Shown: positions 1 through 45,300 of the stretch, in pieces | Position numbering within the stretch: position 1 is the stretch's first letter | How the letters are laid out: every line of letters begins with the position of its first letter | DNA from: Amyelois transitella | Taxonomy: Eukaryota > Arthropoda > Insecta > Lepidoptera > Pyralidae | Direction: 5' to 3' | DNA: 64,000 nt | Assembly: GCF_032362555.1 (NCBI RefSeq) | Contig: NC_083531.1 | Coordinates: 3,906,001-3,970,000, forward strand | Program-made: the position numbers and the translations under genes | The notes under the pieces: generated by a model | Seen by the model: only the letters and a program-made list of their open reading frames with translations | Databases searched by the model: none | Told to the model about the DNA's origin: nothing

Positions 1-1368
1 TACGCAACGGATTTTGATGCGGTTTTTTGTAACAGGCAGAGTGATTCAAGAGGAAGGTTTTTATGTATAATAACATCTATTAAATAATTGATTTTTTCCG
101 AAATTTGCACCCGTGCGAAGCCGGGGCGGGTCGCTAGTTATATATACCTAATAATATTGCAGGCAGTTGGAACCAAAAGGTTACTCACAAAGTTTTATTA
201 GCAAAGGAATACCTTATCTTTATGCTATGAATTTTTATAATGGTATCAGTTACCTTCTCACCTCTCTGGAGAGGAGCCCGGGGTGCGCCTTTGACCATGG
301 ATCCTGGATTGGGTGAGTCAGGTGTTTACACGAAGCGACTCCCGTCTGACCTCCGCAACATTTGCATGGAAACAACCCGTATTGGATTGTGGTAACCGCT
401 AGATAAACTTAGTCGACATTTACTACATCCATGAGGAAGAGTGGTCTGATTCTAAAGTCACGAGCACGGCATTAATTTACAAATGCATTGAAAATTAAAA
501 AAAAAACATACATACATATACATAACATCACGCCTCTTTCCCGGAGGGGTAGGCAGAGACTACCTCTAAGCCCTACCTTTTAAAAAAAGTTTGAATAAAA
601 TCAAATTAGGTATGTATAAAAACGGTTATGTAGGTATAAATAAAAAGGTATATCAGTTCCTTGTAATTTTTAAGATATTTATTCAAAAAATTTTAAAAAA
701 TATCATATTCAAAATTTTTATTAATTATTATATGATACCTTCTTCATATCGCTTAATAATTGTCAAATATTTCGGTTTCACAACATTGGTTGACGTCAAA
801 TAAATTACTTAAATCTACGTTTATTGCCGCTTCCAAGGCGTCAGTGCAGAAGAAGCGGTAACAAACTGTACTGTTATTCACATACCTCAGTCCTGCCTAT
901 ATCTCGCTACGCCTTTCCAAAACCACCGATTTTCGCGTATTTTCTTTCTCCTGTACATACATACATAATATCACGTCTTTATGCCTTACGGGGTAAACAG
1001 AGCAAACGCTCTCGAAAAGACTGAAAATCCACTGATATTCAAATAGTAACAAGGAGCTACCCCATCGCCTTATAAGGTATCACAAATTTTCAGCCTTTCC
1101 CTTGATAGACTTTTACAATAGGCAATATTTGCCTCGGGCGTGCAAATAGGCAGCACCCATGTACTTACAATTGTTATTTGTATATTTTATATCATGACTA
1201 CGTAGGTAGGTATATGAATTGTTTAATAATCTAAGTTTAATGTGAAATTATTTTATATTTTAAGAATATCTTAAGTAGAATAAGGTGTGTTGACAATAAA
1301 AAGAAAAATTTTGTTACGAGTATTATTTTTTAAATATCCTGGAATGACGTTCTTTTTTCAATTTTTTT
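1..1368. other. Gene-free 3' flank made of repeats
   Basis: No credible exon seen. The first 140 bases match a repeat also present near 25.07-25.36 kb and end in a GC-rich segment finishing in CTAGT (about 110-139), the kind of 3' end seen on the Helitron-like repeats here. Then follow a tRNA-derived SINE fragment (about 240-440), a 3' fragment of the (TATG)n LINE in minus orientation (about 505-575) and a dispersed repeat with a TTGACGTCAA core (about 715-890). The short open frames here look like chance or repeat frames. Confidence 0.6.
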
Positions 1369-1374
1369 TTTATT
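1369..1374 (-). terminator. Poly(A) signal for terminal exon c of the MCFD2-like gene
   Basis: AATAAA on the minus strand, about 117 nt past the stop codon of the most distal alternative last exon. Confidence 0.5.
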
Positions 1375-1490
1375 ATGCATAAAAAACATTTTATACTATA
1401 TGTGATGACAAAAATATTAGGGAACAAAAATAAAACTGTCTCAACACTTAGTCTTATTATAATGTAGAAAATCAGTACAAAATAAATAAA

Positions 1491-1648
1491 TTATGTGGCT
1501 AATGGTCTTCCAGTCGCCATTTTGAATTCAGCGTAATCTATGAAACCGTCCTTATTAAAATCTGCTTGCTTCATAGCTCCCTCTACGATCTCCTCAAAGT
1601 CAGTATCTTTGTAAAGGACAGTCGTTTCTTGAACTTGACCATTGGGTT
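1491..1648 (-). CDS. MCFD2: Alternative last exon c (second EF hand) of MCFD2-like gene
   Basis: Acceptor TTATATTTCAG, then a phase-1 entry that completes the split codon G|AA from the common donor at 7355. It encodes 52 further residues and TAA. The EF loop is [12 protein letters not shown], with D1, N3, D5, G6, D9 and E12 all present. It resembles exon b more than exon a (GQV, YKD, E..E.A.K in common). Confidence 0.82.
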
Positions 1649-4600
1649 CTGAAATATAATCACATTATTAAAAGTGAATAGGCATTTACCTTTGTACTTA
1701 GAAAATTGTTTAGTTATCAAGTAACCGACAGACATCGTAAAGCCGATTTGGGATGCATGTTCTTGGTAATTTTAAGGAAGCGCTTCGATATTCTTAAACT
1801 CGGGTTTGAATCCCGGTCAAGGCATGATGAGAAAAGAAGTTTATGATTGGTCTGGGTCTTGGATGTTATTATAAAATATAGTATCGTTGAGTTAGTATAT
1901 ATAGTATCGTAACACAAGTCTCGAATCTACTACGAGGCTAAATCTGTGTAATTTGTCCCTTACATATTTATTTAATTAGTTCAGGAACAGAGAATAAAAA
2001 AGATCTAGGCAAAGAAATCTTCGTTTATTCGCCGGCGGATACATGCAATAAGTTTATTACGTACTAGAGGGATACTTTACGTACATACCTGCTGAAATAA
2101 TAACTAAATAGATTTGATATATGCTCATGTTCAACCAGTCGGTCCAATGCTTGAAAGGATAAAATGTAATAATAAAAACAAAAAAAATCACACAAAATTT
2201 TAATAAAAATAAATGACAGAAATGCAATTGGACAATAGATGGCGCTGGAATCATTTTTACATAGTACTGCCGTTCGCCGCTAGATGGCGTTTGACGGAAA
2301 TGGCCGTTTGCATGAAAATTATTATTTCTGTGATGCATCAGCTATTTTAGCTTTATAATTACTAATCACATATTCAGTGTAATCCACGTATCCGTCCTTA
2401 TTAAGGTCGGTATGTTTGAGAGCCTGCTCCAATACATCTTCTAATTCGTTGTCTTTGTATGCTCTATGGTTAATGTCCACTTGCCCTGAAAATTGTAAAA
2501 AATACGCCCATTTTCATCAGGTTTCTCAGCCCCAAGGTGGGAAAATAGAAATGTTTAATTTATCGAATAACTCTCTTAAATAGATGAGCTTGCTTGAAAA
2601 TAGTTCATGAATTTGATGAAGCGAAAGAGTTTGTAGCAAGTGGAAATATGTAGTCGCTGTCTACCTTCCGGGAAATTGGCAACCGACTATCAACCCATAG
2701 AGATTATAAGTGCGTATGATTTTTTAATTATTGACCTACATATTTTCCCCTCGTATAATGCCTATTTGGCAACTTACTAAAACTATACATTTTAACACAA
2801 GCAAGGTATCAAATGACAAAACAATACTTACCCCAGTTTCAAATAGGGCTTATCATAACATTTCACAAAAAAATGCGGCGTAGTCATAATACTAGCCGTT
2901 AATAATAATAAAAAAAAAATTGACAGGCACCTAATTCCAAGCGCGTATTTCATTTCAAAATGTAAATTCAGACGTCCTGAATTATTCAGTACCTAATTCA
3001 AACAATCCAAATAAAATTCGGGAAGTTTTTATAAGTATTTGTTTGAATAAGGTAGGTACTATATCATTTAGGATTTCGACGTTTGAAAATACTGTTACAG
3101 GCGTCCAAGCTAAAGCTCGCTTGATGTAAAGCAGTTAATGTGATCGGAACTAAAAACAATTGTAATATAAAATGCGTAACGACCACATAGCTTGGCAGAT
3201 TCACACAAATAAATAGGTAATTTTTTTTAGTTTAAATTTAACCCTTATTAATTTCATTGATAATTTATATATTATAAATACGGCTTTCCAAATACTAAAT
3301 TTAAAATTTGGTTCTGCAAATATTGAAGAAGGAAAATATACCAAACGAAAATTATATCGCACTTCAATGAAAGCTTTCTAAATCAAAGACAAAATATGTA
3401 GGTACCTAGGTACTCTATAACCTTTGTGTTATTCTGTGTCTTCAGCTAGCTACACATCAAATTTAATCGTTATCGGTTCAGAAGTATATGCGTAAAAGAG
3501 TAACCAAACCATACATACATAAACTCACAAACTTTCGCATTTATAATATTAATAATTGGATAGGACACACTGTTTGTTTGTCTGCACGGAATACACGCCA
3601 CTGCATCATTTAAGATTTGAATGAATTGTTAACTTTCTAAATTATACAATCAGAATTCCTTTCTCAATTCTTCTTTAATAAATTACAATAATACATCTTA
3701 ATACTTCTTGTAGCTCGAATTCCCTTTTTACAATGACCCCAAAAAAACGCGGCGAACTCAAACGTCAAAAAGCAAAATCGGTATTGCCAACACATGACAT
3801 TAATATACTATTTTTTTATAATGTTAACAGAATGGAGGGACGGACTAGGCCACAGTATATCAGACATGTATATATCAAAAGCAATTTTATATAATATGAA
3901 AAAGGACGAACACATGTGTTGAGAAAAAAAAACAAAATGTCAGTGTATAAATTTAATCAATGTTTAACACGTCACACAACCAACAAATTGATTCAGAAAC
4001 ATCCATAAATATACCACACAAATTCGTAATGCATACTTACTTTACTTTTACCACACAGAAAATTTTTTTAAATACGTTTATATTATATAAAAATATACAT
4101 ACATAATAAACTTTTAATAAATAGTTTAAAAAAAAGTTTATCTTAGACTTACTTGTTTGCTACGCGATTAGCTTATCATGAATTATTTGTATGATTCTTT
4201 TTTGTTTTGTTTAACTCCCGAAATATTCCCACATCAATTCATTTCAACATGTAAAGATCATGATGGGAACTTGACGAAATCAAGGAAACTTTTTTATATA
4301 ATCTCTATAAATATCTACTATTAAGAAATTACATTTGGTGGAGTGTGAAATAAAAGATTCTGTTGATAAAAAAAAAACACTTATTCAATGAGTTACCCAG
4401 TAAGAGTAAGTAGGTAAATGCTTTATTGTTCACTAAAGGAGTGACTAATCTAAACATTTGCAAGTAAATCTTTCAAGTTAAAATCTATAAGTCTGTTTAG
4501 CATAAAGATGGCATATTTCTGAATCAAGATCCCGACACAAAATGATAAAAAAACGACTCGACTCTCAGACAGACGTACAAATTACTCATCGAAAGCTGGG

Positions 4601-7600
4601 TATACACCGCGCCAACAATCGTTGGCGTTCGTGGGCCAGTGTGTACGCAACTTTTAAAATGTACCTAAATCAGAATTTTTATACCTTATCCTGATCCTGA
4701 TTGGCTGAAGAGCTGTCAAATAAGGTACTTCAAACTTGACAACCAAGTCCAAATTGGAATAATGACAGTTTATGATAAACTATATTTAGCAATGATTCAA
4801 AATATACATAGAAAATGGTTCAGTTTATTTACAAGTTGATTACACAAATGTTTTTCTTCATCAAGTTTATGTGAGAAAGTAAAAAAGAAATAGAAAAAAT
4901 AATCAATAATTTATACTAGGAACGTATAAAGTAGTTTAGAAAAGGAACAACTATATATCAATTTTTTTTTCAAAGAATTGCCGATAGACAGTATGTTGTA
5001 TATTTTTTTTTACAAGAACTTTAAAATATTTTAGTTACATACATAGTACCTACTCATCTGGTACTGTCTCAGTCATTATGATAGTCAATAAATTTTACTA
5101 AATATTAAAATGGCAAAAATTAAGTAATGGAAGATTGTATATAAGCAAAATACTAAATGCCCTTTCGAGAAACGCTTAAAATTAAATATAGAAGTTAAAA
5201 AACATAATGAATCATATTCGAGAAAATAAATACAATTAAATGGAAGCACTTTAGTAAAAATAAATTCGTCTTCACAGATCCAAAATTAAAACAAATCTAC
5301 ATACAACCTATAATTGTCTTTAAATGCTAGTAAATTTAAAAAAACAAATTAGAATGTACACCTTTACGCTTTTTTAGCGTAATATCGACTATTTAACAAA
5401 GTAATTCCGTACATTGCAATACAAAGATGATGTACATAAATTTTCTATCCACATTTGTGACCAAACAACATTCCAGATTTTGCGAATTGTCTTTTTTATA
5501 TTGACTTTGCATGTTCATTTTTAGATATTACAATTTAGATGTAACTAAGAATGTAAAGAGAAAATAAGAAAGTATAGTTAATTGCAATTCCGTAGCAGAA
5601 TTTTCATTTTTTATTTTGATTCAGGAAAGTCAACTACACGTTTTAGACTTACAAAAAATATATAATACTGCATTTTCATACCAATACAATATTTTCTGTC
5701 CGTAAATTTATTTGGCAGCAAGCTTTCGGACATTGCTGTGTTTAAAAAAAAATTAAAATTCTGCCACGGAAACGTCAACTTTCGCGCCAACATTTGACAT
5801 TGACATTTTAAACGTCATCGGAATGTCAGTTACGCTTTGCCCTCTTGTTTCTGGCTCTTCTGTTGCGCGCGGATGAACTCCGGATAATCGATATAGCCGT
5901 CTCGATTGTGATCGTCCATGTTTAAAATTGGATCGATCAAGTTGACTAGTTCGTCATCTTTGAAGATCTTTTCGCCGACAGGCGCTTGTCCGCCTTGGGG
6001 TTGCTGTTTGTGCCCTTGTTCTGGTGAAGACAAACACGAATGAATGATGGGCGAATGTGCTGTTTTTTTAACACTGGCCAAGTTTTAGCAATACCCTCAG
6101 AATTTTTGTAAATGAAAGGTAATATTAGTAAAGATACATAATAATATGATGTCCATATTATCTTTAAAATTTTAGAAATGTGCTGCGAAAATTTTGCCAG
6201 TGTTTACACAACACTTAGTAATGCATGTGTATATTTTAAATATTAACCAATAAATAAAGATTTTAATCCCTTTACCACCAAAATTAATGTATCATAATGA
6301 GAACATGTTCAAAGCATTTCCCCAACGTATAATAAAGCATATGACATACATTATTACCGAATCCCAAAAAAGTTTAGGCAACATAGAACAAGTTACAACT
6401 TACAAGTAAGTTAAGTCAATGTAGGTTTCAAATTGAAATAATTACATTTTAATTTATAATTTAATAGTTTTTATAGCTTCACCGGTGCTACGAGTGATTG
6501 CGATCGCTGCAATGATCAGTTTTAGTAGAAATAATATAACAGTTGAAGTAAATGTAATGGAATGTCTTCTTTAACATAACTTTTCCCTAATTTTGGGGAC
6601 AAGGACGCCAAGTTGGAAACATTCTGCGCGTTGAGGGAATATTTGCAGGTACATATTGCACCATTACGCTATTATTGCCTACTTATTGTCCGCTATTGTA
6701 CCATTACGAGCAAGATAGCAGGAGTCATTTTGTTTTTGGATCTTAAGTTTAACGGTACTTGTAATAAGGTCGTTATTATATTGAGTTTTACTACACCGTC
6801 GAATATTGCCGAGGCGTCTTACATTATAATTGTTAGTTCTGTAGAGGATATAAAAACTAAGACATAAAATTCATTACAATATAAGAGAACATGAGAGTGA
6901 GAGAGAGTGCCGTGTGGTTCCCAGCACCAATAGGAAAAAGAATAGGACAACTCCATCTCTTTCCTATGGATGTCGTAAAAGGCGACTAAGGGATAGGCTT
7001 ATAAACTTGGGATTCTTTCTTTAGGCGAGAGACTAGCAACCTGACACTATTTGAATCTCAATCCTATCATTAAGCCAAGCAGCCGAACGTGGCCTATTAG
7101 TCTTTTTAAGACTGTCGGCTCTGTCCACCCCGCAAGAGATATAGACGTGACCATATGTACGTATGGAGCTGCAAGTGGAATTGTTTGCCGGTTGACTGGA
7201 AGAGATCCCTTCACGGGATAAGTCCGCCATTGCGAGTGATTTGTTTGTTTATATGTATGTATGTAACGTGACCTATTAGTCTTTTTAAGACTGTCGGCAC
7301 TGTCCACCCCGTAAGGGATATAGACGTGACCATATATATGTAACAAAAACCTTACCATGCCAATGTATGAGCGACTTGATCAACTCGCAGCCGTCCAATT
7401 TGTTATTGTTGTCTGAATCGTGCATTTTGAAATAATGAAACTGCAACTCTTGCTCCGACATTTTGGAAGTGTCAATCGGCACGTCCATGTGTTCTTGTAT
7501 GTGACTGTGGAAGAAATAAAAAAATAAATAAAAAAAAAAAAATTGGATTCAAATTTATTCACAAGAATTTTTGCATGAGAGATAGCTGTGCCCGCGACTT

Positions 7601-10600
7601 CGTCCGCGTGGAATAGTTATTATGGGCATCATTGAAGCCCTCAAGGATGAATAATTCTCCCCGTTTTTTTTTTTCACATTTTCCATTATATCTTCGTTCT
7701 TTATAGTTGCAGCGTGATGTTATATAGCCTTAAGCCTTCCTCGATAAATGGTCTATTCGGCGCAGAATTTAAATTCAGACCAGTAGTTCCTTGGATTAGC
7801 GCGTTCAAACAAACAAACTCTTCAGCTTTATAATATTAGTAGAGATTTATATAATAGCGACCCGTCACGGATAAGCATTTATAAATTCAAAACTTTTATT
7901 CATTATTATGGGACACTTCAACATCACTTGATAATTATCATATCTTTCGGTTTCACAACATTGGTTGACGTCAAATAAATTATTTAAAACTAAGTTTACT
8001 GCTGCTACCAAAGCGTCTAAAATAACTACCTATTGATTGTATACTCACTCTCTTTCCTGGTTAATGTTGGCCACATTCAGGAGTTGAGGATCTGAAACAA
8101 AACAAAGAAAATAAGTAGAACCTTTGTACTAGAATAATAAATTCTCCTGAATATAATTTTGTGTACATAAATACCTAAATAAATAATTAAAGTTTTAAAA
8201 CGTGAGTTATCCTTTTAGATTCAAATTCTAATTAATTTTTTTTATTGCTTATCATAAAGTACATCAGTTGAATTACAGTAACTGCTTATAAATAGGTACA
8301 ATATGTACCCTGTTGCGCATCGCAATTTTAAAATAATATGGAACGGCGGGCAGGGTTATGTCGACTATTAGGTATGTTGAATATAACAATAATAAAATAA
8401 TGTCGCATTATTTTTGGAGTTAATACTAATAAGCAATTTAAAATAAATATAATTTACAAAATAAATTGAATTGATAAAATGATATATCATAATGAAAATA
8501 ATTCAAATTTTAATGTCAATATTTCTATCGTTTAAAAACTCGTCCGGTGTATTAGCATTAATCGGTCAAAAGTAGTTTTAAAACGTCGTAATAGAAAAAA
8601 AATATGATAAACTTCACTTAATTCATATAATCACATCCCTTGCGGGATGGACATCGCCGGATTCATATAGTGACAGGTTGCTAGCCCATCGCCTTAAAGA
8701 AGAATCCCAAGTTTATAAGCATATACATAAGTCGCCTTTTACGACAAATTTATTTGTCAAAACATATGTAGTAGGTACATAACAACATATCTATACATAA
8801 ATACATTTAACATGTTAAAAGTAAAATAGTGTTCCAACACGTTTTGCCGTCATGACAGTGTGCAAATGTTAAAAGTACATAATGTCAATACTTATAATGT
8901 TACCAGCTGTGCCCGCGACTTCGTCCGCGTGGAATAGTTATTTTGGGCATCATTGAAGCCCTCAAGGATGAATAATTTTCCCCGTTTTTTTCACATTTTT
9001 CATTATTTCTTTGCTCCTTATAGTTGTAATGTGATGTTATATAGCCTAAAGTCTTCCTCGATAAATGGTCTATTCAACGCAAAAAAATTTCAATTCGAAC
9101 CAGTACTTCCTGAGATAAGCGCGTTCAAACAAAGAAACAAACAAATTCTTCAGCGTTATAATATTAGTATAGATGAACAAATAAAAATGACACTCACCTC
9201 CATGATGCGCGTGCGCCTGTTGTTGTACAGGCACCTGTTGTACGGGCACTTGTTGTTGGGGCTGGTATTGTTGCGGTGGGGGTTGATATTGTTGTTGTTG
9301 TTGATACTGTTGTTGTGGGGGCTGGGTGAGAGGGAGTGATTTTTTAATAAATATTTGTATTGATAACACTGCTAACTTATATTTCATACTATACTATACT
9401 ATTATAGAATAGATTTATTTTCAAAATTGGATACAAAATATCACTTATTGACGTCACGTCACTAAAATCTAATTATAACTACTACCGCTTCTAAAGAGCA
9501 TGTGTAGAAGAAGCGGCGGAACAAACTACACTGCAGCATTTTCACCGGACGTCAATTTACAAATATAGAGATCTCTTAAATTGTAAATCTTGGACAAATG
9601 TCGACATTAAAAAACACGAATGAACGTTAAACTAATTATTTCATAAAACAAAACAAAAAATGTACAAGCCAAACACTTATGATTACTTATGATACTGTTG
9701 ACTCTGTCTACCCCGAACGGGATAAAGACCTGATTATATGTATGTATGTGCGGTGTGGTTTCACCACTCCATCTCTTTCTCATGGACGTCGTAAAAGGCG
9801 ACTAAGGTATAGGCTTATATACTTGAGATTCCTTTTTGGGCTAGCAACCTGTCACAATTTGACAGACAGTCAAATTGTGACTGTCTTTCAATGACTGTTG
9901 GCTCTGTCTGCCACGCAGGGGATATAGACGTGATTATATGTATGTATGCTAGTAGATACCACTCATATATACTTGTTTTATTTTGCCTACCTGTTGATGT
10001 ACAGGCTGGGGAGGTGGGGGCGGCGGTTGATAATTCTGTAAATGAATGAGAATATTACATCCTACTAATATTATAAATGCGAAAGTTTGTGAGCATGTCC
10101 TGATGTCAGTATAAATATAAATATATACGGGACAAATTACACTGATTGAGTTAGCCTCGAAGTAAGTTCGAGACTCGCAAAAACTACTGAACCGATTACT
10201 ATGAAATTTGGTATGTAGGTAGCTGAAGACCCAGAATAACATATAGGTAGGCTTCTTTTTATCCCAGAGTTCCAGCGGGATTGATAGGGTTTCCATGCGG
10301 ACGAAGTCGCGGGCGGCCTCTAGTAGTACATAAACTAGGTTTCTATTGTTACCGTGTGGTACCCGGCTCTTAAGAATAGGAGCACTCTTATCTGTTTATC
10401 CCATGGTGTAAAAGGCGACAAAGGGATAGGTAAATAAACTTGGGACTCTTCTTTTAAGCAATGGGCTAGCAACCTGTCACTATTTGAATCTCAATTCCAT
10501 CATAAAGCCAGCTGAACGTGGCCTCTCAGCCTTTTTGAGACTGTTGGCTTGTTGAATTTGGAATGCAGATAATAGAGTTAAGAGTTGCAGTTTATTTTTT

Positions 10601-11230
10601 AAACTAAGTAAAGGTAAACTAAATGCTAAGATCTTATGAACTTGAGGCATCACTTTAAAGTCAATGCTATTTTGTTAGAGCACTTTTGAGAGCTTTGAGA
10701 TTGTTACATTAATATTTTCTATTTCTTAGTATTTTAACTTTCACTTTCTTGTTTTTTAATAATAATTTTAATGCATTGGACCTCTATTTGCCTGGTGGCA
10801 AGTAAGATGAGGCCTAAGGTGGTACACGCAACCTCAAATAATACCTATACAGTCTTGCCTAGAAAATCCCCAAGTTGTATGTATCGGAAAAGAGAAGAAG
10901 AGTCTTAGGAAACTAAATTTTTCCACTTATCACAAACCCTGCATAAATCTTCTGCTTCATCTAAATTCATCAATCTTTTCAATGCAATATTAGATCAAGA
11001 ACACTGGAAACTGAAGAGCACAGGGTAAGATTGATATTGAGCTATCTCCAGAAACATGTACCTGTTACTCCCATAGTATAAACGGTTTTTTTTTTTACGA
11101 AAATTAAATATTAAAAAATTTTGTTTACCTGGTAGTTCTGTGGTGGGACACCTGGCGCTACTTTCTGCTGATATTGTTGAGAAATTGTGCACTGCAGTAC
11201 AGCGGCGAAGAGTAATATTGAACGCAACAT
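1491..11230 (-). CDS. MCFD2: MCFD2-like EF-hand secretory protein with three alternative last exons
   Basis: Common exons: 11129-11230, 9991-10035, 9198-9321, 8049-8091, 7356-7504. Alternative last exons: a 5830-6020, b 2322-2485, c 1491-1648. Every junction is GT-AG and phases close exactly, giving 217, 208 and 206 residues. Residues 1-17 are a signal peptide ([17 protein letters not shown]). Residues 18-90 are Gln/Pro-rich. Residues 91-155 carry the MCFD2-type run [14 protein letters not shown] with EF-hand loop 1 at 134-145 (D,D,N,K,D,E positions; Asn replaces the usual central Gly). EF-hand 2 comes from the last exon. In vertebrates MCFD2 is the calcium-binding partner of the cargo receptor LMAN1/ERGIC-53 in ER-to-Golgi transport. 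That role is inferred here. The long Q/P-rich segment is unlike vertebrate MCFD2. The start is the only ATG that gives a signal peptide in frame with exon 2. Confidence 0.88.
1780..1960 (+). repeat. tRNA-derived SINE (family B), degraded copy
   Basis: Contains the B-box-like GGTTTGAATCCCGG and the downstream text GTCTGGGTCTTGGATG shared with other copies (best one 21413-21645). Lies in the region between last exons c and b. Confidence 0.65.
2053..2058 (-). terminator. Poly(A) signal for terminal exon b
   Basis: AATAAA on the minus strand about 265 nt past the exon b stop, so this exon has its own plausible 3' end. Confidence 0.45.
2322..2485 (-). CDS. MCFD2: Alternative last exon b (second EF hand) of MCFD2-like gene
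   Basis: Acceptor TTTTACAATTTTCAG, then G|GG completing the codon split at the common donor. It encodes 54 further residues and TAA. The EF loop [12 protein letters not shown] has all calcium ligands, and the tail is basic (IADASQK end). Same phase and same domain as exons a and c, so only one of the three can be used per transcript. Confidence 0.82.
2486..5609. other. AT-rich stretch between last exons a and b
   Basis: No open frame or exon supported. It holds a piece of a Helitron-like repeat in minus orientation (about 3455-3560), a CGCCAAC/GTTGGCG hairpin with a 4-base loop near 4610-4628, and otherwise low-complexity AT-rich DNA. Confidence 0.5.
5610..5615 (-). terminator. Poly(A) signal for terminal exon a
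   Basis: AATAAA on the minus strand about 215 nt past the exon a stop codon. Confidence 0.5.
5830..6020 (-). CDS. MCFD2: Alternative last exon a (second EF hand) of MCFD2-like gene
   Basis: Acceptor TTGTCTTCACCAG, phase-1 entry (G|AA), 62 further residues and TAA. It begins with a Gln/Gly-rich linker, then the helix [13 protein letters not shown] and the loop [12 protein letters not shown] (residues 191-202) with all calcium ligands. Of the three it looks most like the second EF hand of vertebrate MCFD2, so it is probably the ancestral version (inference). Confidence 0.87.
6907..7165 (+). repeat. Family A short retroelement, full-length copy
   Basis: Family A is the commonest repeat in the window. 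Features of a full copy (about 255 bp): a 5' end GTGCCGTGTGGTTCCCGGCAC that can fold as a GTGCCG/CGGCAC hairpin, the middle GTCGTAAAAGGCGACTAAGG, a second hairpin CAGTCTT.TTC.AAGACTG, and a 3' end GGGATATAGACGTGACCATA followed by (TATG)n. Open frames inside it are not genes. A second 3' fragment lies at 7268-7341, just before the exon donor at 7355. Confidence 0.85.
7582..7850 (-). mobile_element. Lep1-like non-autonomous Helitron
   Basis: Family C: 5' A|TCTATACTAATATTATAAAG, an internal block near AATAGACCATTTATCGAGG, and 3' CGGACGAAGTCGCGGGCACAG-CTAG|T. Ends and A/T target match Helitrons. This copy is read on the minus strand. It is followed at 7880-8025 by repeat family D (TTGACGTCAAATAAATTA core). 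Confidence 0.8.
8905..9175 (-). mobile_element. Lep1-like Helitron beside MCFD2-like exon 3
   Basis: Same family as 7582-7850. Its 5' end stops about 17 bp from the GTGAGT donor of the exon at 9198-9321. Confidence 0.8.
9395..9580 (+). repeat. Dispersed repeat family D
   Basis: Contains ATCACTTATTGACGTCAC and GTAGAAGAAGCGGCGGAACA. An inverted copy lies at 16075-16262; related pieces at 715-890, 7880-8025 and 16990-17205. Class unknown to me. Confidence 0.6.
9692..9949 (+). repeat. Two adjoining family A copies
   Basis: A 3' fragment (9692-9747) runs straight into a second, partly deleted copy (9748-9949) with its (TATG)n tail. Confidence 0.75.
10055..10549 (+). repeat. Helitron-like family C2 followed by family A copy
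   Basis: C2 (10055-about 10325) begins TCCTACTAATATTATAAATG and ends CGCGGGCGGCCTCTAG|T. It is interrupted by a piece of SINE family B (about 10125-10170). A truncated family A copy follows at 10350-10549. Confidence 0.7.
10550..11128. other. First intron of the MCFD2-like gene, unique part
   Basis: AT-rich intron sequence with no exon or recognisable repeat seen. Confidence 0.4.
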
Positions 11231-12241: not shown

Positions 12242-15200
12242 CTATGACATCTTTTTAATAATGCTGACTTTTTTCCTTTTTCCCTCGCCGTCTTCTTGAA
12301 CAACCAATCCCTCAAAATCACTAACCAATCCTTTTATACAATCCACTTCGTCATTCGTCAACCCCGTTGGCAAATCGAATTTCGCATATTCGCTCCTCTC
12401 CGCCAAATCCTTGCACATTTCCCGGACGCCATTTTGGAAATCCTCATCCACGGCATAGACAACTTTTTCTTTCTTCTCCTCGGGCGCGGACTGGAACGCG
12501 TTCTGCCATATTTCTTTTTCTTTTTTCGCGGATCTTTTTAAATACTGATCCAAATCGGCCAGTGCCTTACCTATGTCTCTGTTCTTCGGTTCCAATTTCA
12601 AAGCCTTCCTGTAATAGACCAACGCCTCTTCGTGTTTACCTATCATATGATGCGCACGACCGTAATAAAACAAACCTTTGCAATGACTATCTAAATTGCT
12701 TATTCTATCTAAATTTTCACACATATTCATAGCATATTTAGGTTTATCTATTTTACAATAACACAAAGCTAAATTTATATATGCTGTTATTTTCAATTTT
12801 TTAATTTCCCCCTCCTCTGCTTCGGTTTCCGGGCGGGAGACGTTCAGCACTGATATGGCTTGTTGGTAATTTTTTATTGCCTTTTTAAACTTTTTCTTTG
12901 AAAACAAATCTTTGGCTGATGTATATAGGCCATTGACAGTTTTAATGGTCACTTCGAATTTCTTCTGTTGTTCCATTGGTAGGTCATTGAACCTGGAAAA
13001 AAAACCATTTACATGGTGAAAGATAGGAAGAGATATGTGTTAAGATGTTACCTATGCCTACTACTTCTTTTCTATCTCCTGGAGTTAGTTCTGGCTACAT
13101 TCTCACCTCTATGGAAAGGAGCTTGGAGTACTCTTTTACAACCACGGATCCTGGATTGGGTGAGTCTGGTTTCTTAACGAAGCGACTCCCATCTGACCTC
13201 CGCAACCTTTGCAGGGAAACTTAACTCATATTGGATCATGGTCACACATTCAGTTGACTGAATGTGTCCCTCACACAAGGTAGACAGAGCCTAACATATT
13301 ATTATAAATGATGGAATTGAGATTCAAATTGCTGTCCCAACGCCTACCCCTTAGTCGCCGTCTACGACATTTATGGGAAAAATATGATGGTGTGGTTCTA
13401 TTCTGAAGCTGGGAAAAAGAGACTTACCTGTCTCCAGCGTGCACATCACTAACGCTGTACAAAGATATCACGAACAAAGCCCTCTCGGGCCTTATCCTGG
13501 GGGGCACCCCCTGAGGCCCCCAGGCCGCTGCAGGCTCCAGCAGTAAGTGGAAGCGAGCTGTTGGGCCGTGGACCATGGTGAGGCCAATCTCTAGGCCCGG
13601 CAGGATCTTTCTCTTGCCTAGGCGTAGCGTCTGAAAAAAAAAATTATATGATCGAGTGTATGCATACATAGCTATGGTCTCGTCTATATCCCTTGCGGGG
13701 TAGACAGACAGTCTTGAGAAGACTGATAGGCCACGTTCAGCTGTTTGGCTTAATGATAGAATTGAGATTCAAATGGTGACAGGTTGCTAGCCCATCGCCT
13801 AAAAAAGAATCCCAAGTTTGTAAGCCTATCCCTTAGTCGCCTTTTACGACATCCATGGGAAAGAGATGGAGGCAGAAAAAAATTGGGGATTCTTCATCAA
13901 GGCGATGCGGTAGCAACCTGTTATTGTTTGAATCACAATACCATCATTAAGTCAACAGCTGAACGTGGCCATTCAGTCTTTTCAAGACTGTTGGCTCTTT
14001 CTACCCCGCAAGGGATATAGACGTGACCATATGTATGTATGTATAGCTTGTAAATTTACTTTATTTGAAGGAAGTATGCAGAGCAAGTGGAAAGATGTAG
14101 TCTCTGCTTACCCCTCCGGGAGAGAGGCGTGATTTTATGTATGTATGTATCTATATTAATATTATAAAGCTGAAAAGTTTGTTTGTTTGATTGTTTGTTT
14201 GAACGCGCTAATCTCAGCAACTACTGGTCCGAATCGAAAAATTCTTGCGTCGAACAGACCATTTATCGAGGAAGGCTTTAGGCTATATAACATCACGCTG
14301 CAACTACAGGGAGCATAGAAATAATGGAAAATGTGAAAAAATACGGGGAAAAATATTCATCCTTGAGAGCTTCAATGATGCCCATAATAACTATTCCACG
14401 CGGACGAAGATGCGGGCACAGCTAGTGTAATATACATACATAAATATAATCACGTCTATATTCCTTGCGGGGTAGACAGAGCAAACAGTCTTGTAAAGAC
14501 TGATAGGCCACGTTCAGCTATTTGGCTTTAAGATAGAATTGAGATTCAAATAGTGACAGGTTGCTAGCCCATCGCCTAAAAGAGGAATCCCAAGTTTATA
14601 AGCCTATCCCTAAGTCGCCTTTTACGACATCCGTGGGAAAGAGATGGAGTGGCCCTATTCTTTTTTGTATTGGTGCCGGGAACCACACGGCACTAGTGTA
14701 ATAATACTTGCTTAAACAGCTTCACTCACCATAGGCATGCCTCGATTCATAGTGAGAGTTGAATCAAAAGGAATATTAGTTTTCTCCCAGTAAGCGGCGA
14801 AATGGAGGGTCACTTCAGCGTCTACAGGCACTAGAGGCCCATCGCCTGAAAGAGAAAGAGAGAAGAGAGATGACATAAAGTCGCATACACCTTTTCCAAC
14901 ATACATACATACATGTGGACACGTCTTAATCCCTTACGGGAAGGGCCCATCACCTGAAAGAGAAAGAGAGAAGAGAGATGACATAAAGTCGCATACACCT
15001 TTTCCAAACATACATACATATAGTCACGTCTATATCCCTTGCGGGAAGGGCCCATCGCCTGAAAGAGACATGCCATAAAGTCGCACACACCTTTTTCAAC
15101 ATACATATGTACATATAATCACGTCATTATCCCTTGCGGGGTAAACAGTGCTGTGGAAGCGATGCTTCGGCTCGACCGCCACCAAAGGGAAGATCTTCCT

Positions 15201-27756: not shown

Positions 27757-28062
27757 TTAATTGTCGGGCATAAGGTGCATATTCCCCTTCATGAACATTA
27801 ACATGTTGAAGTTCTCGTCTGAAAGCGACGCTCGTTTTGGTGTTAAAATGTCTTTACCCGTGGAAAACAGACGTTCAACTGCAGCGCTTGAGGGTATAGC
27901 AGTATTGTATTTAATAAATAGATTTATAAATATTTGTTCCCCGAGGAATGCAGCATCGTTGAACGAGTCTATTGATTTCATGTCCAGCCACATTTTAACG
28001 AGACTTTGCGCTTTACTCTTTAAAGAGTTGGAGCTCTTTGGTTTTTCTATAGACTGAGTCAC
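27757..28062 (-). pseudogene. hAT transposase C-terminal fragment
   Basis: About 100 residues with the hAT dimerisation signature (SSAAVERLFSTGKDIL, then a LSDENFNMLMF helix). An upstream fragment at 28815-28994 (acidic DDDEEEDFF end) is separated from it by the nested insert and lies in a different frame. The catalytic N-terminal part is absent, so no active enzyme is encoded. Confidence 0.8.
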
Positions 28063-28064
28063 AG

Positions 28065-28814
28065 AATAGGCTATTACACTCTTTTTTGAAAACTGTTTTA
28101 AATCAATCCTGAGACTGTATTTTACCTATAGAATTTTTATTAAAATTTTTTGAAGCCGAAAAGTGCTCTAAAAACGATTTATTATTTATGATTTTGTATT
28201 TTCGCGCGAAAACGCCATCCGCCATGCTGTTTTGACTCGTGACGTCATACTTTTAGTAAACAATACGGCTCTACGTAAGACTAAAGTAAAAAGATTTTTG
28301 TAATAATGAATTACAATACATATTGTTGGTGTCTTGTTCCTGAATGCAAGAATACAAGTATAAAAACACCAGAAAAATCTTAATTCAGCAGAACAGAAAT
28401 CGGGATTGGACGCAAAAAATTTCGCCACCATCAACGTATTAATCCTCGGTAGATTTATATTGTCTGCTTTCACAAAACCGTCTTCCATGATTCTATTAAA
28501 TTATTAAAGAGTAAAAACACAAAAACGTGATAGAAATTTTAAAATTTCAAAATAAACAGAGCCTGACATCATCAATATGTTTTCGATTCGATATTTGTTT
28601 ACTAAAAGTATGACGTCACGTCAGTACCCAACATGGCGGATAGCGTTTTCGACTTTTGAAGAACAGATTAAAAAAGAGGATTTTTTAAATTGAATTATAA
28701 AATCCATATTGCACTTTTATGAATAATGATCGATGTTTTTCTTTTATTTTTTACAAAATCTATAAGATACGTGCATTTTTATATTTTTTTTTACATCGTG
28801 TAAAATAGCCTATT
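28065..28814. mobile_element. Nested element inside the hAT, with a THAP-like start
   Basis: Bounded by AATAGGCTATT in inverted orientation (28065-28075, 28804-28814), with internal inverted arms of about 60 bp (28202-28264 and 28590-28656) containing TGACGTCATACTTTTAGTAA. At 28308-28385 (+) a short frame reads MNYNTYCWCLVPECKN and stops after 25 residues. The C-x-C/P-x-C pattern suggests the start of a THAP zinc finger as in P-element-like transposases. Family call is tentative. Confidence 0.5.
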
Positions 28815-30028: not shown

Positions 30029-30034
30029 TTTATT
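30029..30034 (-). terminator. Poly(A) signal overlapping the HGH1 stop codon
   Basis: The final codons GAA-TAA followed by AT create AATAAA across the stop. No other AATAAA occurs in the next 90 nt. Confidence 0.5.
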
Positions 30035-31112
30035 CAACAGCTTTTAAATAATCTTGGTCCATTTTCTCGAATTTCTCCTTCATATCATCAGGTACTTCTA
30101 CAGTTGACAAATCATCAGCACCAACCTCGTCTTCTTTTTGTATCAGAATGTCAACTACGTTCTCGCAAGCAAGTAGTGCTTGCGGATCTTTCTCCCATTT
30201 ATGATATTCTCTAAGAATGTAATACACTCCGTTCTCTCTTAATATCTCCCTTCCCTCCCTTTTTGTACAAAATTTAACTAATGTCTCTAATATCATCTTA
30301 CGGATGTCTATATCTGGATCACGTTTTTTTTCTTTCGGCAAATATTGTAACGCAATCGGAAGTTTGTCCATCTCTTCGTCATCATAATCCTCATCCCCCA
30401 TTAACGGATGTAAAAGGTAAGTGAGTAAATCCAATTCTGAACTAAGTAAATAATCATGATTTTCTGTATCAAATGATAAGTTCCTTACAGTTCCTATAGC
30501 ACCACCTCTTCGTATTACAGATTGCTCGAAATTACAAAACGGTAACAGTTTTATTAAAGGTACGTGTGGATTTTCTTCTAACAACCATTTCCTTATACGT
30601 GCACTTTGACTTAAATTACTGAACATTGGCGATAGGTAATGCAAATTTGAATTTTTATTGAATTCTAAGTTAACATACGCATTTAATAAATCATTTAGTT
30701 GTGGTATAAATGTGTCTAGGCAAACTTCTAAGCCTTCTTCGGATCTGGTTATGTTTGTTAAGATCATGCATGCAATATCAGCGTATCTTTTTTCCGGATT
30801 CAGCACATAACCTATAAGTAATTCTATTATATTCTTGTGGATTTTCGGCTTGTATTTTAGAAGTTCTGAAGCGCCTTTTGGTTGAGCCGTTAAGTTTACT
30901 AACACTGCAAGTGCGTTTTTAGATATCTCGTTGCTTTTATCTTCAATTAATTCAATAATGCACTGAATAGTCTGTTCGTTTTCAAGGAGTGTGTTTATGC
31001 CTTCTTCTTTCCCTGATAAACCGAGAAGGTAATCAAGTGAAACATATTTTAAGTCTAAACGGGAGTTCGGCTGTAAGAACTCCAACATTTCTGTAAGCGG
31101 ATCTTTAGCCAT
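30030..31112 (-). CDS. HGH1: HGH1 homologue, armadillo-type eEF2 chaperone
   Basis: Single-exon, 360 residues, close to the family's usual length. All-helical armadillo-like repeats run through residues about 20-230 (for example NALAVLVNLTAQPKGASELL). They are followed by an acidic loop (GDEDYDDEEMDKLP) and the conserved C-terminal HGH1 domain (ALQYLPKEKKRDPDIDIRKM; REGREILRENGVYYILREYH). In yeast Hgh1 helps fold elongation factor eEF2 with the chaperonin TRiC; the same job is expected here in the cytosol. The ATG opens the domain directly and no signal peptide is present. It is the only intronless conserved gene in the window. Confidence 0.95.
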   Translation of the reverse strand: MAKDPLTEMLEFLQPNSRLDLKYVSLDYLLGLSGKEEGINTLLENEQTIQCIIELIEDKSNEISKNALAVLVNLTAQPKGASELLKYKPKIHKNIIELLIGYVLNPEKRYADIACMILTNITRSEEGLEVCLDTFIPQLNDLLNAYVNLEFNKNSNLHYLSPMFSNLSQSARIRKWLLEENPHVPLIKLLPFCNFEQSVIRRGGAIGTVRNLSFDTENHDYLLSSELDLLTYLLHPLMGDEDYDDEEMDKLPIALQYLPKEKKRDPDIDIRKMILETLVKFCTKREGREILRENGVYYILREYHKWEKDPQALLACENVVDILIQKEDEVGADDLSTVEVPDDMKEKFEKMDQDYLKAVE

Positions 31113-31260
31113 AATTTTACAAAAATAAAATTCCGAGATTAATAACTATGCCGTCGAACAGCCTGTTGGAAAAAAACCAAATATCACATTGGCATGAAAA
31201 TGAAAGATGTCAATGTCATATGAATTGTCAGTCTTCTTTTTTCTAGACGAAGGTAAACCA
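31113..31260 (-). promoter_or_regulatory. HGH1 upstream region
   Basis: Unique sequence with repeated TGACAT/TGACAA words on the minus strand (about 31187-31212), like those between shutdown and GTSF1. The exact start site is not visible. Confidence 0.35.
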
Positions 31261-42300: not shown

Positions 42301-45300
42301 TTTTTGTAATGGTTTTTTTTTTCAAATAAATGCTTTTTACTTTACATACATACTAACAAACTTTCGCCTTTTTAATATTATTTATTGGTAGGATTTTCTT
42401 GGCACAAATATAATAAACAATGCGGGCAGTAAATCTGAACTGTTTACCGGTCGCCTTGACTTTTTAATAATTTGCATAAATGTAGGCAAAAGACATTGCG
42501 AATTATTGTCTTCGGTTGACTAGTAATTTATCAGGGTTTGCTCGCTTTCATAGTATTATTATAGCTCGTAGTAATATTCATATGAAATTATTGAAGACAG
42601 TGACATACAGACAGACAGTGACAGGTTGCTAGCCTATCCTTAAGTCAGCTTTTACGATATCCACAGGAAAGAAACGGAGTGGTCCCATTCTTTTTTCTAT
42701 TGGTGCCGGGAACCACACGGCACAAAAAAGTTTAATTTGAAAGAAAACACTTTAACGCGTAACATAAAGTTAATTGCCTCATTTGAATACACGTTCCAAG
42801 ATGGCGGATCGATACAGATAATATATTCTAGAGGAAATGTTGGGGAATTTGTTAAAATTCCTTTTTTATTCAATTTCGATTTACTAAATGTAGGAACAAT
42901 GAGAATGTGATGTGTCGTTTCCGGAAGCGTTTAATGGGCGTATGCATAGATTTATTTTAGTTTTTAATGTATATTATTATATGTGTAGTAAACTTATTTT
43001 TGCAGTGAGCTTGCTTCTAGCTAGCTTCGCCACGCATAGAAATATCTAGCGCAATATATCAGTAAGTTACTTAGAGACTTGCTGTGTCATAGCCGTGCTA
43101 CGCAGCGCTACGCAGCGCTACCCCACGCATAGGAATATCTAGCGCAGTATAGCAGTATCTATATCTGCTTTGTGTTGTTTTGTATGTTTTACTCTTATGG
43201 TGCAATAAAGAGTTTTATCTATCTACTTAAGTGTAGGAGTGACTTGGTGCGTCGTAGCAGTGCTACGCAGCGCTACGCAGCGTTACGCCATGCATAGGAA
43301 TATCTAGCGCAGTATATCAGTAAGTTACTTAGTGACTTGCTCTGTCGTAGCCGTGCTACGCAGCGCTACGCCACGCATAGGAATATCTAGCGCAGTGTAT
43401 CAGTATTTTACTTAGAGACTTGCCGTGTCGTAGCCGTGCTACGCAGCGCTACGCCACGCATAGGAATATCTAGCGCAGTGTATCAGTAAGTTACTTAGAG
43501 ACTTGTTGTGTCATAGCCGTGCTACGCAGCGCTACGCCACGCATCTATACTAATATTATAAAGCTGAAGAGTTTGTTTTTTTTGTTTGTTTGTTTGAACG
43601 CGCTTATCTCAGGAACTACTTGTTCGAATTGAAAAAATCTTTTTGTGTTGAATAGACCATTTATCGAGGAAGCCTTTAGGCTATATAACATCACGCTGCA
43701 ACTATAAGCAGCAAAGAAATAGCGAAGAATCTATGGCGACATTTCAAACGACATACGAATTGGAGCATCAATATAACCTCCGACACAACATAGTCTGTCG
43801 CGCGGTTCCCCAGGCATCACATCAGCCTGCAGGAAGACGCCCGAAACATCGCTCGCGCTATAGAATTATTTAAAGGTTTTCTTTCTACTTAACTACCATG
43901 GAAGTTTAGATATCAAAATTTAAGCTTCTACTACCAAAAGTTATTTTTAAAAGATCAATATAAGTCAGTAACCTGACGAAGTTAATACAAAGAGTACCTA
44001 CACGTATATAGAGTGCACGCGATTAATAACATGAATATTATATTTTTTGTATTGGTGCCGGGAACCACACGGCACCAATAAAAAAAGAATAGGACCACTC
44101 CATCTCTTTCCCATGGACGTCGTAAAAGACGACTAAGGGATAAGCTTACGAACAAGGGATTCTTCTTTTAGGCGATGGGCTAGCAATCTGTCACTATTTG
44201 AATCTCAATTCTATCATTAAGCCAAATAGCTGAACGTGGCCATTCAATCTTTTCAAGAATGTTGGCTCTGTCTACCCCGCAAGGGATATAGACGTGACCA
44301 TATGTATGTATATTATAAATGCGACAATTTGTGAGTTCTTATTTAACTTTCATAGAATTTAGCACACACATAATTAGTTATGAATACTGAGAATGACATT
44401 CGGGCATTTTTCATACCGGTAAATTTACATTCCGTAAATAAATAAATGTATACGAGGTAAATTACGCAGACTGAGCCTAAAAGTAAGATCGTGACATGTG
44501 TTATGGTATACTAAATCAACGATACTAAAATTAAAAAAAGAATCTTAAATAAATACACTTCGAAGATCCAGGCCAATCAGAAAGAGTTCTTTTTTCACCA
44601 TAACTTGATCAATAATCAAACCAGGGACTTTTGGGTTTGGAGGCGACAATCAGTCATCTGCACTAAACAGTTGACAGCCCGTATATACATGTGGCGACAT
44701 CTATACGCCGCACGTCACAACATCCAATCACACAACAACTGTCAATCATCGCGAAGAAATTGACGCGCTCAGCCAATAGCAGCGAATAATCTAAATCGCG
44801 ATTACAAAGATTTCACGGATTGGAGCATAAATACAACCTCCGACACAACATCGTCTGTCGCGCGGTTCCCCATGCATAACACCTAGCCTGGCGGAAGATC
44901 TTCCCTTTGGTGGCGGTCGAGCCGAAACATCGCTCCCGCTACATACATATTTGGATTGGAAACTTTTTAAAAGGTGGCTAAGGGAAAGGCTGATAAGCTT
45001 GAGATTCACGAGAGAGATGGGCTAACAACCTGTCACTATTTAAATCTCTAATCCATCATTAAAAGCTGAACATCGCCTCATCAGTCTTTTCAAGACTGTC
45101 CGTTAAAATACATATTTCAACTCGCTTTTAACCATAAGAGCGCGCTCTACAACAGTATATTGTCACACTAACAGTACGATGTAACTCCATTTATAAATGC
45201 CAAGTGAAAATGATGGATTTCTATTATTAAGTTGTTATAACACGAGGAAAATTACAGTTTCTGGACGCAATATATCAAAATGATTTACAAACAGGTAAGT

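What the first reader, a model, noticed from the sequence alone, without database searches (positions are those of the whole stretch)
1491..7504. MCFD2-like gene with three interchangeable terminal exons, each a different calcium-binding EF hand
Seen: one donor (7355, phase 1) and three downstream exons with good acceptors, the same entry phase, all calcium ligands, a stop and a nearby AATAAA. Known: MCFD2 EF hands bind the cargo receptor LMAN1. Inference: the cell can swap the second EF hand and C-terminus, perhaps changing receptor or cargo choice or calcium response. Exons b and c look like a later duplication.
Basis: partly seen in the sequence, partly recalled or inferred. Interest (0 to 1): 0.8.

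Follow-up and report, generated by a model that had tools for sequence, protein, structure and literature searches.

The report
MCFD2 gene with three alternative endings
An insect gene for a small calcium-binding protein that helps load cargo for export from the endoplasmic reticulum carries three different last exons, so the cell could probably choose which calcium-binding tail the protein gets.

Summary
A complete MCFD2 gene lies on the minus strand: five shared exons end in one phase-1 donor, and each of three downstream exons (a 6020-5830, b 2485-2322, c 1648-1491) restores the frame (217, 208, 206 residues). Each encodes an EF2 hand with all calcium ligands. EF1 and the four histidines that bind zinc in human MCFD2 lie in the shared part, so only the alpha3-alpha4 loop, EF2 and tail are swapped. 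No second EF1 exon was found in the window or 40 kb to its left. Synonymous differences are saturated while amino acids are kept: old, constrained exon copies. Acceptor c is weak; 'b and c are later' is not resolvable. No transcript or second insect sequence could be examined. Exon c ends 1.9 kb from the end of neverland, an ecdysone gene; in silkworm the gene model numbered next to neverland is labelled MCFD2 isoform X2 and is about 3000-fold higher in prothoracic gland than brain: a gland-specific ending, or neverland spill-over. Verdict: probably real alternative last exons; a new member of a known kind.

The parts
11129..11230 (-). exon 1, ATG and hydrophobic N-terminus ([14 protein letters not shown]...)
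   Evidence: donor 98th percentile
9991..10035 (-). exon 2, Pro-rich
9198..9321 (-). exon 3, Gln-rich; ends in phase 1
8049..8091 (-). exon 4, ends in phase 2
7356..7504 (-). exon 5: EF1, the four zinc-type histidines, shared phase-1 donor
5830..6020 (-). alternative last exon a (63 residues; most like human EF2, 18/32); AATAAA 117 and 214 nt after the stop
2322..2485 (-). alternative last exon b (54 residues); ATTAAA 117 and AATAAA 263 nt after the stop
1491..1648 (-). alternative last exon c (52 residues); weak acceptor; AATAAA 116 nt after the stop

Best explanation
This is the insect MCFD2 gene with three alternative last exons made by old tandem duplication of the EF2 exon. Pre-mRNA spliced to exon a and cleaved behind it gives the ordinary, human-like MCFD2. 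When exon a is passed over, transcription runs 3.5 to 4.4 kb further and the same donor joins b or c; the choice would be a contest between cleavage after exon a and splicing further downstream (inferred). All products keep the N-terminus, the histidine cluster and EF1 and differ in the alpha3-alpha4 loop, EF2 and tail, so they could offer the ERGIC-53 receptor co-receptors with different calcium response, receptor affinity or cargo contacts (inferred). Shown: exons, phases, open frames, homology, no second EF1 at the locus, constraint. Not shown: transcripts, regulation, binding.
For: Three full open frames from one donor. All three isoforms match human MCFD2 best: E 1.5e-22, 2.5e-18, 6.1e-21, and Pfam EF-hand_7 at 4.2e-11, 2.9e-11, 2.3e-10. 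One EF1 exon in the window and none in 40 kb to its left. Whole-genome search with isoform a: four places, namely exon 5, exons a and b, and an EF1-like exon on C14; with b: b, c, a and one hit at E 0.51; the tool scores only best candidates, so distant EF hands are not excluded. Codon usage of a, b, c at the 98.5th, 97.0th, 96.7th percentile of 336 control open frames. Second codon positions kept more than third: b-c 30 against 15 of 41, p 0.0017; a-b 25 against 13, p 0.014; a-c 23 against 12, p 0.025. Between a and b no ATG frame reaches a phase-1 donor above the score cut (0 candidates). Human MCFD2 also separates EF1 and EF2 by an intron: D122 in exon 4, the 210-244 deletion in exon 3 (PMC4183524, passages). 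Bombyx has an isoform X2 of its MCFD2 homologue (PMC5700172, PMC5336252, passages).
Against: No RNA evidence. Acceptor c is weak. Alone, exon a matches no Pfam family, b matches EF-hand_1 below its cut-off and c only just above; the pair with EF1 is what scores. No second insect sequence was available: three viral-contig scans and two genome-contig scans gave no relative; the five loci fetched held only short chance matches (best E 0.008). The silkworm X2 sequence was not seen.
Confidence: 0.75

Rival explanations
1. Exons b and c (or c alone) are relics of exon duplication that are no longer spliced in; only exon a is used.
For: Acceptor c is weak; no RNA evidence; a 50-codon frame stays open by chance about 9% of the time under equal codon use; second-versus-third position bias in a-b and a-c is only p 0.014 and 0.025.
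Against: Intact frames, phase, all calcium ligands and coding-like codon usage after saturated synonymous divergence; similarity between the exons lies in the coding part apart from short weak matches.
Confidence: 0.12
2. b and c belong to a separate transcript with its own promoter and start exon, not to the MCFD2 donor.
For: One hydrophobic ATG frame (2254-2089) between b and c ends in a strong phase-1 donor and could start a transcript ending in c; two shorter candidates also lie there (3 in all).
Against: No candidate before b (0); no second EF1 exon in the window; neither exon has an early Met.
Confidence: 0.07
3. The three endings are real but functionally equal; they differ only in when or where the message is made or how its 3' UTR behaves.
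For: All calcium ligands and the hydrophobic pattern of helix 4 are kept in all three (read by eye).
Against: Only 12 to 14 of 32 core residues are shared between any two of a, b and c, and loop and tail differ in length.
Confidence: 0.3

Closest known systems
Human MCFD2 (ERGIC-53/LMAN1 co-receptor)
   Same: Two EF hands, N-terminal HIxEH, THVH/IHWH histidines, EF1 and EF2 on different exons
   Different: Three alternative EF2 exons and a Gln-rich stretch before EF1 here; alternative endings of human MCFD2 were not examined
Drosophila CG17271 (MCFD2 homologue by recall)
   Same: Also Gln-rich: 10 glutamines in the compared region (PMC3055267, passages)
   Different: Its sequence and isoforms were not available, so whether it has alternative last exons is open
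Alpha-actinin genes with mutually exclusive exons that change an EF hand
   Same: Alternative splicing changes EF-hand motifs; the isoforms' calcium affinities were compared (PMC4435478, abstract; PMC9177970, passages)
   Different: Those are internal exons of a cytoskeletal protein (recalled); here last exons with their own stops in a secretory co-receptor
Insect serpin-1 genes with many alternative C-terminal exons
   Same: A shared body joined to one of several duplicated C-terminal coding exons; isoforms differ in targets (PMC10513286, passages)
   Different: Protease inhibitors, not calcium-binding co-receptors; many more exons
EF1-like gene on C14 (MCFD2/CGREF1-type paralogue; name recalled)
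   Same: EF1 49-50% identical, an EF2-like exon 1.2 kb away
   Different: Intron placed elsewhere (by eye); only one EF2-like match in the 30 kb fetched

Membership tests
MCFD2 | Best match to MCFD2 across the EF-hand pair | tested here: met
   four human MCFD2 sequences rank first for all three isoforms; the next protein scores E 9.1e-07, 2e-06 and 1.7e-05
MCFD2 | Two EF hands with calcium ligands | tested here: met
   ligands read from sequence
MCFD2 | Four-histidine zinc cluster (human H51, H55, H99, H101; PMC10944485 section 13) | tested here: met
   all four aligned, all in exon 5; zinc binding itself not tested
MCFD2 | Secretory signal, no ER retrieval signal | tested here: inconclusive
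   hydrophobic N-terminus and no KDEL-like tail, read by eye; no predictor run
MCFD2 | Calcium-dependent binding to ERGIC-53 | not testable with these tools
   exons of one ERGIC-53-like gene are present; binding needs protein
Tandemly duplicated alternative last exons | Homologous exons, same entry phase, own stop, one shared donor | tested here: met
Tandemly duplicated alternative last exons | Usable acceptor and poly(A) signal for each exon | tested here: inconclusive
   acceptors a and b strong, c weak; poly(A) hexamers present but common by chance
Tandemly duplicated alternative last exons | Transcripts joining the shared donor to each exon | not testable with these tools

The most novel reading that the evidence does not exclude
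The distal ending (c, or b and c) is a prothoracic-gland isoform switched on with the neighbouring ecdysone genes. In this genome a P450 that looks like Cyp307/spook (recalled) and neverland lie divergently about 24 kb apart, and exon c ends 1.9 kb beyond neverland. In silkworm the gene model numbered next to neverland matches MCFD2 isoform X2, had no fly homologue by BLASTX although fly CG17271 exists (so it probably lacks EF1), and is 3041-fold higher in prothoracic gland than brain. A cargo co-receptor would then gain a steroid-gland-specific calcium-binding tail through its place beside a steroid gene. The dull alternative is reads from a long neverland 3' end overlapping exon c.
Probability: 0.15. 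Interest if true: 0.65.

Novelty: new member of a known kind. Interest (0 to 1): 0.45.

Why it matters
MCFD2 is studied in blood clotting, where its EF hands contact both the receptor LMAN1 (ERGIC-53) and the cargo (PMC10317151, passages). A gene that keeps EF1 and the histidine cluster fixed and offers three EF2 modules is a natural experiment on what EF2 adds to receptor binding, cargo choice and calcium release. It could also explain an odd silkworm entry, an MCFD2 isoform among prothoracic-gland genes, as either a gland-specific ending or a mapping artefact from neverland.

Tried and rejected
Second EF1 copy before b or c: none in the window or the 40 kb fetched to its left. Separate gene for b: no ATG frame reaching a phase-1 donor above the cut. 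A hydrophobic frame at 2992-2828 ending near GTAAGT was considered by eye; its donor phase (2) does not fit b or c. For c one odd candidate (2254-2089) remains, kept as a rival.

Relatives in viral and bacterial collections: none. Rfam scan of the window at gathering scores: 0 matches. ARAGORN: one tRNA-like hit with a stop anticodon.

A count of LMAN1-contact residues that change was dropped: one structure paper is not held, and the passages read of two others gave no residue list. Repeat map: 23,675 of 64,000 bases of the window are repetitive by comparison with itself and 101,572 bases of own-genome loci, against 645 of 6,000 at 1001-7000; 3566-6902 is the second-longest repeat-free gap. 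Weak support for constraint only.

Literature: all ten searches were read as listings (titles and starts of abstracts; several capped); none showed a paper on alternative EF-hand exons of an insect MCFD2. Only open-licence PMC papers were searched.
Full report
What is there. The window is bases 3906001-3970000 of contig C27 in a 327-Mb, 33-contig genome. On the minus strand a full gene model was built: exon 1 (11230-11129), 2 (10035-9991), 3 (9321-9198), 4 (8091-8049), 5 (7504-7356), then a (6020-5830), b (2485-2322) or c (1648-1491). All three combinations give one open frame, of 217, 208 and 206 residues. Cumulative phases at the exon ends are 0, 0, 1, 2, 1. Exon 3 also ends in phase 1, so an EF1-skipping join to a, b or c would stay in frame; transcripts would have to exclude it.

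What it encodes. From EF1 onward the three isoforms match human MCFD2 before anything else in the PDB, with E 1.5e-22, 2.5e-18 and 6.1e-21, and the EF-hand pair family of Pfam. Alone, exon a matches no Pfam family, b matches EF-hand_1 below its cut-off and c just above it. The alignment with human MCFD2 keeps HIxEH and the two histidines at the end of EF1. In human MCFD2 these are H51, H55, H99 and H101, described as a probable zinc site that hooks the N-terminal lid (PMC10944485, section 13). All four lie in exon 5, so splicing swaps what follows: the loop between helices 3 and 4, helix 4, the EF2 loop, the last helix and the tail. The three EF2 loops keep all ligands and are the only matches to a strict EF-loop pattern in 104 kb (EF1 lacks the glycine the pattern asks for). 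Human D122, mutated in a bleeding patient (PMC4183524, passages), corresponds to D in a and E in b and c. Two further patient sites, Y135 and I136 (recalled), correspond to Y, Y, F and I, V, I.

Chance or decay? Chance is excluded by the scores. For decay: over 41 aligned codons pS is 0.97, 0.84 and 0.76 for a-b, a-c and b-c, beyond correction, while pN is 0.41, 0.45 and 0.35. Second positions are kept more often than third in all three pairs (p 0.014, 0.025, 0.0017). Codon usage, against 935 codons of neighbouring genes (two long exons of this window and six neverland exons picked by eye), puts a, b and c at the 98.5th, 97.0th and 96.7th percentile of 336 control frames. The shared exons of this same gene reach only the 93.8th percentile, so the test is not sharp. 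Against: acceptor c has a poor pyrimidine tract and scores at the 86th percentile with a generic matrix typed from general knowledge. Poly(A) hexamers follow all three stops but are common by chance.

Order of duplication. Exon a is closest to human EF2 (18 of 32; b and c 12 of 32 each) and is the likely ancestor-like copy. b and c are only marginally closer to each other (14 of 32) than to a (13 and 12 of 32).

Are b and c tied to this gene? There is one EF1 exon in the window and none in the 40 kb to its left. The genome search with isoform a found four places: exon a, exon 5, an EF1-like exon on C14, and exon b. The search with b found b, c, a and a hit at E 0.51 on C31. The tool scores only its best candidates, so this excludes close copies, not distant EF hands. 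The same search with c did not complete. Before b no ATG frame reaches a phase-1 donor above the cut; between b and c there are three, one of them hydrophobic with a good donor. The single-gene reading is therefore strong for b and good for c.

Receptor. The genome has matches to L-type lectins at eight places on two contigs. The part of the C28 gene that I compared is nearest ERGIC-53 (E 4.8e-16, VIP36 2.5e-8), and that of the C22 gene nearest VIP36 (4.1e-23, ERGIC-53 5.7e-13). So three MCFD2 endings would face one ERGIC-53, as far as this search shows.

Neighbourhood. Left of the window, on the plus strand, one exon with a Rieske domain (1.8e-17) and one with a KshA C-terminal domain (4.6e-11) (the other five frames tested gave no match above cut-off) mark neverland (name from the domain pair and recall). 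Its stop codon ends 400 bases before the window and 1891 bases from the stop of exon c, tail to tail. Its first poly(A) hexamers fall 171-209 bases after that stop, well short of exon c, so overlap is not forced here. Further left, on the minus strand, lies a P450 (8.9e-56 and 1.1e-15) that I take from recall to be Cyp307/spook-like; the PDB comparison says only P450, steroid P450s (CYP17) first.

The silkworm lead. In PMC5336252 (section 12 read; passages) Bmb000191 is neverland residues 302-453. Bmb000190, the next number, is labelled MCFD2 homologue isoform X2, with 652.9 ppm in prothoracic gland and 3040.8 times brain. That neighbouring numbers mean neighbouring places is my assumption, which the present genome fits. 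The authors found no fly homologue for it at 1e-5, although the fly has CG17271 (MCFD2 homologue by recall). From ppm and read totals I work out about 4 brain reads, too few for constitutive MCFD2 exons. This fits a model covering a distal ending beside neverland. It may be a gland-specific isoform or neverland 3' reads; the paper's main text never uses the word strand.

How it would work. The three last exons compete. Exon a is nearest (1.3-kb intron) with a strong acceptor; b and c need transcription to pass a and give introns of 4.9 and 5.7 kb. Alternative last exons are often tissue-regulated (general knowledge). The function most in line with MCFD2 biology is tuning of the ERGIC-53 complex: missense changes found in patients lie in the EF hands and abolish LMAN1 binding, and the cargo contact involves them too (PMC10317151, passages). 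All of this paragraph beyond the coordinates is inference.

Verdict. Confirmed anatomy, probably real alternative endings, function open. EF-hand exchange by duplicated exons (alpha-actinin) and duplicated C-terminal exons (insect serpins) are known, so this is a new member of a known kind; the neverland link is the part that could raise its interest.

Noticed in passing
C27:3869406-3874980 and about C27:3899322-3905600 (L013, L016), left of the window: A P450 that looks like Cyp307/spook (recalled) and neverland lie divergently about 24 kb apart: probably two ecdysone-synthesis genes side by side, next to MCFD2. In D. melanogaster nvd and spok both lie in the pericentromeric region of chromosome 3 (PMC5788525, passages).
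   Followed up: partly
C14:1825442-1825591 (L008; L010-L012): An EF1-like exon about 50% identical to MCFD2 exon 5, with an EF2-like match 1.2 kb on: a probable MCFD2/CGREF1-type paralogue (name recalled).
   Followed up: partly
window 2254-2089, minus strand: ATG-started hydrophobic 55-codon frame behind exon b ending in a strong phase-1 GTATGT donor: an odd start exon for c, a 3' UTR donor, or chance in T-rich DNA.
   Followed up: no
window 12245-13039, minus strand: TPR-repeat protein exon (Pfam TPR_2 6.2e-13), the upstream neighbour of the MCFD2 gene.
   Followed up: no
window 30033-31145, minus strand: Long exon with DUF383 (3.5e-55) and DUF384, HGH1-type (name recalled).
   Followed up: no
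window 27760-28125, minus strand: Fragment of a hAT-family transposase (Pfam Dimer_Tnp_hAT 2.7e-6).
   Followed up: no
window 43272-43544: Tandem array of an 83-base unit, 3.3 copies, 93% matches, with GCTACGCAGC motifs.
   Followed up: no
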